Assembly (NCBI GenBank): GCA_021832345.1
Contig: JAKBKY010000003.1
Location: 1 to 64,000, forward strand
DNA length: 64,000 nucleotides
Reading direction: 5' to 3'
From: a bacterium
GTDB taxonomy: Bacteria; Vulcanimicrobiota; Vulcanimicrobiia; Vulcanimicrobiales; Vulcanimicrobiaceae
Positions 5,731 through 52,054 of the stretch are shown here, piece by piece; the first letter of the stretch is position 1; every line of letters begins with the position of its first letter. Position numbers and translations under genes: made by a program. The notes below the pieces were generated by a model. The model made no database searches, was not told the origin of the DNA, and saw nothing but the letters and a program-made list of their open reading frames with translations.

Positions 5731-6252
5731 CAACGGGAGGTTAGACCTTTACTGCACGTAACGACCATGAGCGCTTAGATGCGCCGCGTCGATAGCCGGC
5801 ACCCGGTCATCCTTGCAACAATCGCATAGAAGCCGGATGCCCAATGATTCCTGCGTTCATGCTGTCGGCAGGGCCGGCGTAGCGACACGAAGACGAATCG
5901 ATCCGTGGCCAATCCTCTCGGGGCCGAAGGCAGTTGCATACACCGGGTTCAGTTCGCCTTCGAGCGCCCGTGGCCCGCATATCCTCCAAGCCGCGTCGAA
6001 GCCATGGCCGCACGACCGAAGAGCAACGACGAAGCAGCCGAAGAGATCACCCAAGCCGGAGCTGCCGGTGCGCAGGCCCCGGACCAGCCGCAAACCTGGT
6101 CTCACGACGCAATCGCGGCTTCACCCTTGATGAGTGAATCCGATTTCAGAACGCGCCGGCACACACGACAGATCCTCGCCCGTATAGGCTTGCCGAGCAT
6201 TGTAAACCGTGTTACAACATGCCGATGTTTTCTAGTAACGGGAGAGAATCAT
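5731..6252. other. Intergenic stretch without a convincing gene
   Basis: About 520 bp between the glycosyltransferase start and the TnpB element. The plus-strand frame from about 6001 to 6270 (starting MAARPKSNDEAAEEI) has protein-like composition but no recognisable domain, and its stop falls inside the element's terminal repeat, so it might be a gene whose 3' end was replaced by the insertion. A hairpin with arms GACCAG and CTGGTC lies at 6082-6101. The promoter of the minus-strand run must be near 5740-5800, but I cannot assign boxes. No tRNA is seen. Confidence 0.4.
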
Positions 6253-6390
6253 TTCGTTGTGTGTGCCTAGGCCGCGCATCGTGCGCGTCCACCGGCGTCC
6301 TCGGCCGGGATTAGCTCACTCGTGAGCGCCAACTGCGCTCGTCCCCGGATCACCAGCGCGGCGTTCACGTCGGCGTGGCAGGTGAAGCCA
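6233..6390 (-). ncRNA. Predicted omega/right-end RNA region of TnpB
   Basis: TnpB nucleases use an RNA derived from the 3' end of their own gene plus the element's right end, with the guide read from flanking DNA. Given the right end at 6253, the guide would be the reverse complement of about 6233-6252, starting ATGATTCTCTCCCG. The 5' limit of the RNA is not visible; roughly 100-150 nt is assumed from the family. The position rests on family knowledge plus the observed boundary; no secondary-structure prediction was run. Confidence 0.4.
6253..6278 (-). repeat. Right-end terminal repeat of the TnpB element (copy 1)
   Basis: 26 bp identical to 50653-50678, containing the palindrome GCCTAGGC and the tnpB stop codon. 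In tnpB orientation the shared sequence ends with ACACAACGAA, after which the two flanks diverge immediately; this marks the right-end cleavage point. Confidence 0.8.
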
Positions 6391-7511
6391 CACGCAACGC
6401 AACGAAAGCGCCTTCTCCGGCGACTCTCGCGCGCAATCGTGCCGCATCTGCTGCACTCCTGCGACGAGAATCTCGGGTCTACCAGCACCACTCGCCGAGC
6501 AGCCTCTTCCGCTTTCTCGGCAATCAATTGGTGCAAGAGACCAAATCCCGCGTCGAGGATGACGCGATTGAGGCCCGCCTTGGCCGCGACGTTGCGGCCG
6601 GGCTGCTCGGCGGTGCCCTTGGCGCTGCGGGTCATATTCCGCAACCGCAATGCTTCCAAGCCGATCACGTCGGCGTTGTTGACGATGTCTCGTGCGACCT
6701 TGTGCGCATAGTCGCGCCGGGCGTTGGCCTCGCGCTCCTTGGCGCGGGCCAACCGCTTGACGGCCGCGATGCGCTTGGGATCACGCTTGTTCACGCAGCG
6801 CCGTCCGCGCCCGGTGCCGACATAGAGGCTCGCGGCGGCGAGGTCACGCTGCAGGCGAGTTATGGCGGCACGGCGCTTCTCGCCAACCGCAAGGTTGGCA
6901 ATCAGCACACCGTCGCTCGTGGCCGCCAAGACGTGAACGCCCCGATCGATGCCGAGGATTGCCCTCGTTGCGGGCAAGGGCTGGACGGCGCGCTCGCACT
7001 CGAAACAAGCGTACCAGCGAGCGTTGCGCTCGACCAGCCAGGCTCGGCCGTACTCCGGCACGGCGCGGCCTTTGCGTAGCCGCAACGTCCCGACGCCCGG
7101 TATCGTCACGCGCTGCTGCGCCGCGTCGAACTTGAGCGCCCGGTCGCCGTGCGGGAACGTGATCTGGTGCCAGCGGTCCCGCGCCTTGAACCGCGGAAAG
7201 CCCGGCACCTCACCACGCTTGCAGCGCCGAAAGAACGCCTGCATGGCGAGATCGAGCCGATGCAGGACCGCGTCCTCGCACTCGCGGTAGACCGCCGTCA
7301 GGCGCGTATCCAGCCGATGAATCGGCTTACGCAGCGCCGTCAACTCGGCCTCCTGCATCTTGGCCGAGACCTTCACGCCGCGCAGGCGATAGGCGTCGCG
7401 GCGCTCTTGCAGCGCGGCATTATAGAGTTCGCGCGTGACGTCGAGCATGAAGCGCAGCGCTGCCTGTTGGCGCTGGCTCGGATAGAGCCGGACTCGCTCG
7501 ATGCGCTTCAC
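6267..7511 (-). CDS. tnpB: RNA-guided nuclease TnpB (IS605 family)
   Basis: 414 residues, the normal TnpB size. The N-terminal helix-turn-helix-like region (VKRIERVRLYPSQRQQAALR) is followed by a RuvC domain whose three acidic residues are all present: D189 in ILGIDRGVH, E286 in VIGLEALRL and D381 in CHADVNAAL. The zinc-ribbon is intact: C353/C356 in CSRCG and C371/C374 in CVACG. The enzyme should therefore be catalytically competent. It cuts DNA next to a short target motif under right-end RNA guidance and helps retain the element. The GTG at 7509-7511 is chosen because family homology begins exactly there; the frame is open to 7688 through the left-end repeat. Confidence 0.93.
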   Translation of the reverse strand: MKRIERVRLYPSQRQQAALRFMLDVTRELYNAALQERRDAYRLRGVKVSAKMQEAELTALRKPIHRLDTRLTAVYRECEDAVLHRLDLAMQAFFRRCKRGEVPGFPRFKARDRWHQITFPHGDRALKFDAAQQRVTIPGVGTLRLRKGRAVPEYGRAWLVERNARWYACFECERAVQPLPATRAILGIDRGVHVLAATSDGVLIANLAVGEKRRAAITRLQRDLAAASLYVGTGRGRRCVNKRDPKRIAAVKRLARAKEREANARRDYAHKVARDIVNNADVIGLEALRLRNMTRSAKGTAEQPGRNVAAKAGLNRVILDAGFGLLHQLIAEKAEEAARRVVLVDPRFSSQECSRCGTIARESRRRRRFRCVACGFTCHADVNAALVIRGRAQLALTSELIPAEDAGGRARCAA

Positions 7512-7639
7512 GGGAGTGAGCCTACCGCGGTCGAGTGACAGATGCCTGGCACACAACGCATGGATCGAGCCGCCGTTCGTGCTTTCCATGCGCCGCGAGA
7601 CCGACATCGCTTCGCAGGGCACCACCGCGCCGAAAGAGG

Positions 7640-7684
7640 TCGGCGCTCGCGGCGGGGTCGTTCGCATCCTACTCACTACCAAGG
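7640..7684 (-). repeat. Left-end terminal repeat of the TnpB element (copy 1)
   Basis: 45 bp matching 52010-52054 with a single mismatch (7666 versus 52036). In tnpB orientation the repeat opens CCTTGGTAGTGAGTAGG and the DNA outside differs between copies, so the left end, or the left end plus its fixed target motif, lies at about 7684. Confidence 0.8.
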
Positions 7685-26286: not shown

Positions 26287-26870
26287 CTAGCGACGAAGCC
26301 GTTTCACGGTTTCGATCATGTCGATGCGCGCGTTCGAAGCATCGCTGCAGTCCGTACGTTCTATGATGTCCTTATGCCGGCGCTTGGCTTGTCCCACGTT
26401 GTGGATGGTTGGGCCACGGCACGCGAATACTATGAGTCCGAGCCGGCGGGCGAGTTGCGCCGCTTCTTCGGACTACACGAAAGTGCCGGCCACCGCGAGA
26501 TGGACACCAGGATCGCTTTCACTGCCGCGAGCCGCGCGGACGTCGATCGCATCGCTGAGGTCGTTCGTGTAGCCGGCGGCCGCAACATCGAAGGACCGGA
26601 AGACGCCTATGAGCATGAGCCATACTATGGGACACCTCGATAAATCCCGGCACTCGTCTTTGTCCCCAGGGAAACGCATCTGCTTCGTCGGATGCTCAGT
26701 CACAGATCACGCTGTATATGCTCCCTTGCACCCTCCTCGCATCTGCATTCCCCGATGGCCAAAACCAAGCACCCGGATTTATCGAGGTGCCCTATGCCGT
26801 GTTCTTTGAAGACCACGAGGGGACGAAGCTTGAGGTTTGCCATCGGCCCGGGTCTGCGACCTTCCCTTAA
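26287..26870 (+). pseudogene. VOC/glyoxalase-fold gene interrupted by a small inverted-repeat element
   Basis: The frame from 26287 reads ATKPFHGFDHVDARVRS then FYDVLMPALGLSHV and RIAFTAASRADVDRIAEVV, the pattern of a glyoxalase/bleomycin-resistance (VOC) protein. It runs into foreign sequence after EHEPYY and stops at 26641-26643. The missing C-terminus, AVFFEDHEGTKLEVCHRPG, reappears at 26796-26870. Removing 26630-26796 (element plus one CTATG copy) joins the halves in frame as EPYYAVFFEDHEG. In addition no ATG/GTG/TTG precedes the conserved N-terminus; a CTA codon sits where the start is expected, so the gene seems doubly disabled. An internal ATG at 26374 would give only a truncated product. 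Confidence 0.8.
26630..26791. mobile_element. 162-bp MITE-like element with terminal inverted repeats and CTATG duplication
   Basis: Terminal inverted repeats CACCTCGATAAATCC at 26633-26647 and its exact complement at 26775-26789, extended imperfectly by a few bases on both sides. The sequence is flanked by CTATG at 26625-26629 and again at 26792-26796, a probable 5-bp target duplication (a 2-bp TA duplication is the alternative). There is no coding capacity, so it would be mobilised by a transposase elsewhere. Its excision restores the VOC reading frame exactly, which independently supports the boundaries. Confidence 0.75.
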
Positions 26871-50652: not shown

Positions 50653-50678
50653 TTCGTTGTGTGTGCCTAGGCCGCGCA
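50653..50678 (-). repeat. Right-end terminal repeat (copy 2)
   Basis: Identical over 26 bp to 6253-6278. The flank outside (50640-50652) is unrelated to the flank of copy 1, so this is a true element boundary. Confidence 0.8.
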
Positions 50679-50737
50679 GAAACCCGAGCCCGCGTAGCGG
50701 AGGCACTACCGATCTTGCCTAAGCACCGGCGCTTAGC

Positions 50738-51297
50738 CTAACGGTGAAGGATTGCTGCCAGGAGTGCGGTTGCGATGGCGATGACGCTGGTGAGGCCAAC
50801 GAAGAGCGTCAGGGTACTCTTCGCGATCGTGGCCTCCAAGCGGTTTTCGACGCCGGTGATCTTGGCGTCAAGGCGTTGTTCGACCAGGAGCAGATCGTTC
50901 TTGGTGACGGCTCGTTCGTTAATGGCTTCTCCGATTGCGTCAGCCATGCCGCGGGCGGTCGCAAGGTCGAAGATCCCAAGATCGCCGACGATGTCGACGC
51001 CGACTCGGGCGGCTCTGTTTTCGAAGAAGAATTTTCCGGTACGACCGGCTTGATTTCCATCGGGGCAGCATTAGCTATCGCTTCGAGTTCGCGAAGCGTG
51101 GCGAGATCGGGCCGATAGCGTTGCAGCTTTTCGAGGAAAGCTCCATAGCGCTTTTCGGCGCAATAGAGGCAGCGATAGGTCCCATCGGGATCGTCGAAGC
51201 GCCCGCCAAAGGGTGCATAGATCCAGTTCGGCAGGGTGAAGACTTTATTGATGAGACCTACACGAAAGACGTGTTGTGGTAGTTCGAAACGCGGCAC
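50738..51297 (-). pseudogene. RES-domain toxin, frameshifted and merged with a coiled-coil/membrane segment
   Basis: From the GTG at 51295-51297 the protein reads LPQHVFRVGL ... FGGRFDDPDGTYRCLYCAEKRYGAFLEKL, the N-terminal half of a RES (NAD-degrading) toxin; likely active-site positions are R33, Y45 and E56. Around 51060 the homology moves to another frame, reading PDGNQAGRTGKFFFENRAAR and DIVGDLGIFDLATARGMADAI, which resembles the next RES strand region. That frame then continues as NERAVTKNDLLLVEQRLDAKITGVENRLEA plus a membrane helix (LFVGLTSVIAIATALLAAIL) to 50738, like DUF1640-type coiled-coil proteins. The toxin is therefore probably inactive. A 69-residue protein from ATG 50945-50947 could still be made alone. 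Confidence 0.6.
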
Positions 51298-51299
51298 GG

Positions 51300-51698
51300 T
51301 TACTCTGCGAGTTCGCGTCTTGCAGCTTGCAGCAGCCGCGTACCCTTCCGATCGATCTCCTCGTCGTTTTCCAACGAACGTACGTAGGACGATGGGGAGG
51401 CGTCATCGAGGAAGTCGTTCAGCCACGTGAACCACGCCTGAATGCGATCGCGATCGTAGCGTTCCTTAAGCGTTAGAGCGCCGGCATAGGCAAGCTGGAG
51501 CCGGCGGCCTGCCAAATGCGGAACGTCGCCTCGGGTCCATGCGGCCACAGTCCGGGCGTCCTTGACTCCGCCGATATAGGCGACAAGCCGAGACCCGATC
51601 AGGTCGACGAGCTTTTCTACGACGAGCGGGTAGGGGGTGGTCGCCGCCAGGTCTTTGGCTGCAAGATCAGGGCGCGCGTCGGTTTGTGTTCTTTCCAT
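51300..51698 (-). CDS. Xre/MbcA-like antitoxin of the RES-Xre family
   Basis: 132 residues. A helix-turn-helix-like core (LVDLIGSRLVAYIGGVKDARTVAAWTRGD; quoted as AYIGGVKDARTVAAWTRG) is followed by a DUF2384-type C-terminus, IQAWFTWLNDFLDDASPSS. Its gene precedes the RES reading frame by 2 bp, the usual antitoxin-toxin order. The ATG at 51696-51698 has AGAGG eight bases upstream; longer starts exist to 51746. It should neutralise RES and repress its own promoter. As the linked toxin is broken, it may persist as an orphan antitoxin. Confidence 0.75.
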   Translation of the reverse strand: MERTQTDARPDLAAKDLAATTPYPLVVEKLVDLIGSRLVAYIGGVKDARTVAAWTRGDVPHLAGRRLQLAYAGALTLKERYDRDRIQAWFTWLNDFLDDASPSSYVRSLENDEEIDRKGTRLLQAARRELAE

Positions 51699-51790
51699 GA
51701 GGATTACCTCTGGCATGATTGCCTGCCAATTGCAGCGATAATGCAATAGGTTTGTCTTAAATATTGCTAGGAATCTGTGCTAGGAGCGGG

Positions 51791-51985
51791 ATGTGGGCCG
51801 GGATTGCCCGCGCTCGACGCGAACGTGTGTTCGAAATGTCACGACGGGTCGAAGAGCTGGAGGAACGCGCCTGCCACGATATCGAGGGCGCAAAGGCGGC
51901 TATCAACAAGGGGCGCCCGAGCGTGCGCTTGTTCTGTCCTGGCTCGCTCTTTACCAAGAAAACCAAAGTTTACCGACAAATCTAA
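51791..51985 (+). CDS. Possible 64-residue protein, unrecognised
   Basis: ATG at 51791 with AGGAG four bases before it. Reads MWAGIARARRERVFEMSRR then VEELEERACHDIEGAKAAIN, with a helical charged middle, and ends KTKVYRQI. No family recognised. It is divergent from the antitoxin, inside the second element and close to its left end, in a stretch (51699-52009) where nothing else is seen besides the antitoxin promoter, which must lie here. Confidence 0.3.
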   Translation: MWAGIARARRERVFEMSRRVEELEERACHDIEGAKAAINKGRPSVRLFCPGSLFTKKTKVYRQI

Positions 51986-52009
51986 AGTTTCTCAAGGTAC
52001 GGGTCGTCA

Positions 52010-52054
52010 TCGGCGCTCGCGGCGGGGTCGTTCGCAGCCTACTCACTACCAAGG
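52010..52054 (-). repeat. Left-end terminal repeat (copy 2)
   Basis: Matches 7640-7684 over 45 bp with one mismatch. It ends 25 bp before the DUF4127 stop, so the element inserted immediately downstream of that operon. Confidence 0.8.

What the first reader, a model, noticed from the sequence alone, without database searches (positions are those of the whole stretch)
6233..7684. Intact TnpB with right end and natural guide defined by internal comparison
All RuvC residues (D189, E286, D381) and four zinc cysteines are intact. Because two copies share their end repeats exactly, the right-end boundary is fixed at 6253, so the guide should start ATGATTCTCTCCCG at 6252 running leftwards. The left end opens CCTTGG, suggesting that the target motif lies within or next to it. 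No TnpA is present, so the element may depend on a transposase in trans while TnpB remains selected.
Basis: partly seen in the sequence, partly recalled or inferred. Interest (0 to 1): 0.55.

Follow-up and report, generated by a model that had tools for sequence, protein, structure and literature searches.

The report
TnpB-only mobile element with RNA scaffold
A small bacterial jumping gene that carries an RNA-guided DNA cutter but no enzyme to move itself; it is mostly ordinary, but its insertion sites and relatives suggest an unusual C-rich recognition motif and an unidentified mover.

Summary
The window (Ca. Eremiobacterota) carries an IS200/IS605-type, TnpB-only element at 6253-7680(-). 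Empty sites in relatives and conserved ends fix the right end at 6253, so the inferred natural guide is 6252 leftwards. The left end is GG at 7680; CCTT (7681-7684) is the host target, not element. The real TnpB is 414 aa (GTG 7511 to stop 6267), with D189/E286/D381 intact and dN/dS about 0.17. A covarying RNA scaffold (13 of 15 pairs with double changes) ends exactly at 6253. Targets follow WCCNN (CC in 21 of 26 insertions). That would be a C-rich, degenerate TAM, whereas one published survey found TAMs nearly all AT-rich. No copy has a TnpA. Of 17 family genomes with this TnpB, only this genome has any Y1 hit, and its two full Y1 elements are TTAC/TCAA (IS608-like), so they look mismatched. 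Insertions are polymorphic between two genomes lacking Y1 and IS607 transposases. Known kind of element; the open points are TAM and transposase.

The parts
6253..7680 (-). E1: TnpB-only IS200/IS605-type element (left end GG at 7680, right end ...CGAA at 6253)
   Evidence: conserved ends in own and related genomes; boundaries transferred from empty sites of relatives. No empty site for E1 itself was found (26 genomes).
6267..7511 (-). tnpB, GTG start, 414 aa, stop codon inside the right end
   Evidence: dN/dS 0.166 against the C5 copy
7512..7680 (-). 5' non-coding stretch with the conserved left end (7640-7680)
   Evidence: repeat D1 minus the CCTT target; open frame here has dN/dS 1.15
6253..6278 (-). 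right-end terminal repeat, identical in E1 and E2
   Evidence: D5
6253..6354 (-). predicted omegaRNA/reRNA 3' scaffold with two covarying hairpins (about 6324-6340 and around 6273-6287)
   Evidence: 95.7% of cells paired, 13 of 15 pairs with double changes, 0/500 shuffles on four of five measures, 10/500 on the fifth; model R1 110.4 bits, E1 being a training row
6233..6252 (-). inferred natural guide (ATGATTCTCTCCCG...; length assumed about 16-20 nt)
   Evidence: position directly 3' of the right end; no RNA data
7681..7684 (-). host target tetranucleotide CCTT (consensus WCCNN, the inferred TAM)
50653..52050 (-). E2: derivative with the same ends, no tnpB, no RNA scaffold
   Evidence: model R1 only 15.1 bits; target CCTT at 52051-52054
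51300..51746 (-). E2 cargo: Xre/MbcA-like antitoxin ORF, 148 aa
   Evidence: PDB MbcA (6fkg) E 0.002; no Pfam or NCBIfam match; relatives L099 and L100 carry a RES-like ORF next door
50809..51297 (-). E2 cargo: RES-domain gene, broken (N-terminal part only, then frame change)
   Evidence: Pfam RES E 6.9e-7, profile 20-75 of 157; frames

Best explanation
E1 is an IS200/IS605-type element of the TnpB-only (IS1341-like) kind. Shown: it begins GG and ends CGAA, sits 3' of a CCNN tetranucleotide, relatives insert without target duplication or shared core, its tnpB is intact and selected, and a conserved structured RNA ends at the right end. Inferred from the studied TnpBs: TnpB and its mRNA-derived RNA (3' end of tnpB, right end, and about 16-20 nt of flank) form a nuclease that cuts the restored empty site CCTT|ATGATTCTCTCCCG..., with WCCNN as TAM, so that repair from an intact copy puts the element back. 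Also inferred: new insertions come from single-strand 'peel and paste' by a HUH/Y1-type transposase not encoded in the element and not identified here.
For: Protein: (ISDra2 TnpB 8bf8/8h1j E 5e-22). Ends. Empty sites: of 6 sites drawn, L137 and L141 against G094 and L140 against G092 are clean joints CCNN|flank, L139 fits less exactly; L151 against G024 is clean for the GGTAG type. Target: C at -4 in 24 of 26, C at -3 in 23 of 26, CC in 21 of 26, W at -5 in 20 of 26; positions -10 to -6 flat. RNA: (rows not used for building: L048 85.9, L191 79.7, L034 72.5, L028 70.8 bits). Selection: dN/dS 0.12-0.20 in all 11 pairs counted; orthologous in-place pair L140/L145 0.199.
Against: No RNA or cleavage data. 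No empty site for E1 itself. The single-sequence RNA fold is no better than shuffles (z -0.15) and the E1 left end forms no convincing DNA hairpin (z -0.59), although the related genus-37 left end (z -3.09) and the E1 right end (z -2.50) do. A TAM read from insertion sites is the transposase's target first of all. Rfam has no match.
Confidence: 0.85

Rival explanations
1. An IS607-type element moved by a serine recombinase; three IS607 transposases exist in this genome.
For: Three IS607 TnpA over the cut-off in this genome; GG lies at the left tip.
Against: Clean empty sites show no dinucleotide common to target and both junctions, as the overlap mechanism needs (passages of PMC4058570); genus-37 genomes with polymorphic copies have no IS607 hit over the cut-off; NCBIfam scores this TnpB higher for IS200_TnpB (141.7) than IS607_TnpB (82.9 bits), both under their cut-offs.
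Confidence: 0.05
2. A domesticated TnpB (regulator or host-function nuclease) no longer mobile.
For: One copy pair (L140/L145) stays in place under purifying selection; no transposase in the element.
Against: RuvC triad intact; several copies at different sites; presence/absence differences between close genomes with the end structure kept.
Confidence: 0.07
3. A mobile relic: moved in the past by a Y1 TnpA since lost or rarely visiting on plasmids or phages; TnpB keeps it by re-copying. (This differs from the best explanation only in timing and in the source of TnpA, so the two confidences overlap.)
For: Extant copies within G096 are only about 83-91% alike and the differences from G094 could be precise losses; MAGs can miss repeats.
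Against: Polymorphic between genomes with about 97% identical flanks.
Confidence: 0.45

Closest known systems
ISDra2 / ISDra2 TnpB (IS200/IS605)
   Same: TnpB domain set, RNA scaffold from the right end followed by flank-derived guide, insertion 3' of a short motif without duplication (PMC8612924, passages read); PDB match E 5e-22
   Different: No tnpA; predicted motif WCCNN instead of TTGAT; ends CGAA
IS1341-type TnpB-only transposons and PATEs of haloarchaea (PMC3119063, passages read)
   Same: tnpB without tnpA, short tnpB-less derivatives (L188, 327 bp), diverse copies, strain-specific insertions in a strain whose tnpA genes are all broken
   Different: Eremiobacterota; here most genomes have no Y1 gene at all; intact and selected tnpB
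IS608-like elements of this genome (G000:C11 about 275 kb, C3 about 270 kb)
   Same: IS605 architecture, right-end palindrome
   Different: carry Y1 tnpA; ends read as TTAC...TCAA; TnpB only 35-36% identical

Membership tests
TnpB RNA-guided endonuclease | RuvC D-E-D and C-terminal zinc ribbon | tested here: met
TnpB RNA-guided endonuclease | structured RNA from tnpB 3' end/right end, ending at the element boundary | tested here: met
   covariation; as sequence signature only
TnpB RNA-guided endonuclease | guided DNA cleavage next to a 5' TAM | not testable with these tools
   needs biochemistry; insertion motif WCCNN found
IS200/IS605 family | insertion 3' of a short motif, no target duplication, no terminal inverted repeats | tested here: met
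   empty sites of relatives
IS200/IS605 family | subterminal palindromes at both ends | tested here: inconclusive
   right end yes; left end yes in genus 37, not in E1
IS200/IS605 family | Y1 TnpA in the element or genome | tested here: not met
   none in the element; 16 of 17 genomes with this TnpB lack any PF01797 hit. TnpB-only members are an accepted subgroup, so this limits the claim to that subgroup
IS607 family | overlap dinucleotide shared by target and ends | tested here: not met

The most novel reading that the evidence does not exclude
A family-restricted Eremiobacterota TnpB clade uses a C-rich TAM with two free positions next to the guide (WCCNN), and its elements move by an enzyme that current Y1 and IS607 models do not recognise, free of the TnpA-TnpB co-evolution thought to keep TAMs AT-rich.
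Probability: 0.25. Interest if true: 0.7.

Novelty: new member of a known kind. Interest (0 to 1): 0.42.

Why it matters
What moves TnpB-only elements is an open puzzle. The Haloquadratum paper found insertions hard to reconcile with its broken tnpA genes (PMC3119063, passages). Here boundaries, guide, target motif and empty sites are defined well enough to test both TAM and mobilisation directly. A survey of 59 orthologs reported TAMs nearly all AT-rich, a few G-rich, with little degeneracy (PMC10278001, passages); WCCNN would widen that range.

Tried and rejected
Rejected: IS607 mechanism (no shared core). Rejected: resident IS608-like Y1 as obvious helper (different ends). Chance matches: many 3-mismatch right-end hits have no TnpB nearby, and the reversed control in the same call also gave scattered hits. 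Empty-site search for E1, E2 and C3 gave none; C5 aligned to G026 and G018 only roughly. Of the 6 sites drawn, L146 and L147 did not give a clean right-hand joint. L142 and L148 were in the query but were not drawn. Viral contigs: no relative. Guide plus CCNN has no other match in the window with up to 3 mismatches than its own edge. For the target tally I used 26 insertions whose left end I could place; L145 was dropped as ortholog of L140, and L138, L143, L144, L149 and the copies of G001, G002, G060, G072, G085, G097 were left out because the left end was cut off or not placed. Some left ends were found with a pattern that included CCTTGG, a mild bias; those (pattern starting at GG) and genus 37 (alignment) were not. 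For the right-end listing 39 of 40 attempted rows are shown, and most were located by their own end motif, so that list is not an independent count. The site totals behind the Fisher test assume 27% synonymous sites. Whether E2 moved with its cargo or had its interior replaced later could not be decided; the cargo is found once (best other antitoxin-like match 41% identical).

Full report
What is there. On the minus strand at 6253-7680 lies a 1428-bp element (length) with one gene, tnpB. The longest open frame (473 aa) starts outside the element; homologues align from about residue 57-60, and the codons before V59 evolve without constraint (dN/dS 1.15, 60 codons) whereas the core gives 0.166 against the 83%-identical copy on contig C5. 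The gene is therefore GTG 7511 to stop 6267, 414 aa, with D189, E286, D381 and two CxxC pairs. The stop codon lies inside the right end.

Ends. This genome has four elements with these ends: E1, E2 (window 50653-52050), a decayed tnpB copy at C3:472591-473631 and an intact one at C5:147164-148586. The right end ...ACACAACGAA is followed by unrelated sequence in each and in relatives. For the GGTAG left end of the E1 type, L151 (G025) against G024 gives the same reading. So 6253 is the right boundary, GG at 7680 the left, and CCTT (7681-7684) the target. I found no empty site for E1 itself.

Target motif. In 26 insertions with a placed left end, C stands at -4 in 24 and at -3 in 23, CC together in 21, A or T at -5 in 20; positions -10 to -6 and -2, -1 vary (selection of rows told under Tried and rejected). 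In studied TnpBs the transposition target doubles as TAM (PMC8612924, passages; PMC10278001, passages), so WCCNN is the predicted TAM. PMC10278001 states that nearly all TAMs in its screen were AT-rich, with a small G-rich subset, at most 5 nt and little degeneracy. A search for 'TnpB' with 'Eremiobacterota' found 0 papers.

RNA. An alignment of 20 right ends gives two hairpins, 15 pairs: 95.7% of cells paired, 13 pairs with changes on both sides, covariation score 0.756 against 0.228 in shuffles and at most 0.133 when slid; RNAalifold on its own proposes the same pairs. A covariance model built from it finds E1 (110.4 bits; E1 is a training row), and rows not used for building, among them the decayed C3 copy (85.9), L191 (79.7), L034 (72.5) and a copy from another family of the order (L192, 32.9 bits), but scores E2 at only 15.1 bits, E 0.052. 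Rfam has no match in the window. A single-sequence fold of the E1 scaffold is not better than shuffles, so the case rests on covariation.

Spread and mobility. At E <= 1e-100 the TnpB occurs in 17 of 99 family genomes and 18 of 149 genomes of the phylum; named loci of close relatives are Ca. Eremiobacterota. Y1 TnpA (PF01797) is found in 4 of 99 genomes; only G000, the window's own genome, is in both lists, and none of its Y1 hits is near an E1-type copy. G096 (7 contigs, 97% complete) has five copies, G094 six; two sites filled in G096 are empty in G094 with 97% identical flanks. Neither genome has a Y1 hit, and G096 has only sub-threshold IS607 hits (39.3 and 28.9 bits against 110), G094 none. 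Copies within G096 are about 83-91% alike, so these differences may be old losses or arrivals from outside rather than fresh jumps. The orthologous pair L140/L145 keeps dN/dS 0.199 in place (Fisher p about 1e-7 with approximate site counts).

E2. Its interior holds a 148-aa antitoxin-like ORF (weak match to MbcA, E 0.002) followed by a RES-domain gene that keeps only the N-terminal part of the domain and then changes frame. In relatives, two of the antitoxin-like loci (L099, L100) show a RES-like ORF downstream; I judged that likeness by eye. The RNA scaffold and the left arm of the right-end hairpin are gone. A 327-bp tnpB-less derivative also exists in G021 (L188). Whether E2 ever moved with its cargo is open.

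Verdict. It is a member of the known TnpB-only IS200/IS605 kind. What deserves attention is the WCCNN motif, and the lack of a matching transposase in genomes where the element shows presence/absence variation.

Noticed in passing
window 50653-52050: Element ends of the E1 type enclose an antitoxin-like ORF and a broken RES gene instead of tnpB.
   Followed up: partly
window 26627-26795: Long imperfect inverted repeat (57-nt arms, 72% complementary) starting near GGGACACCTCGATAAATCC; looks like a miniature inverted-repeat element. A similar string stands in the left flank of the C5 tnpB copy.
   Followed up: no
L050, L051, L052 (G000 C4, C6, C11): A third TnpB element group (about 39-40% identical to E1 TnpB) with ends AGCGGCGCAG...GTTCAT; the C6 member has a Y1 remnant next to it.
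   Followed up: partly
G000:C7:71971, C7:164996, C10:117936: Three full-length IS607 transposase genes in this genome.
   Followed up: no
L189 (G026:C203): An E1-identical right end of about 45 nt with unrelated DNA inside it; possible second cargo-type derivative or a solo end.
   Followed up: partly
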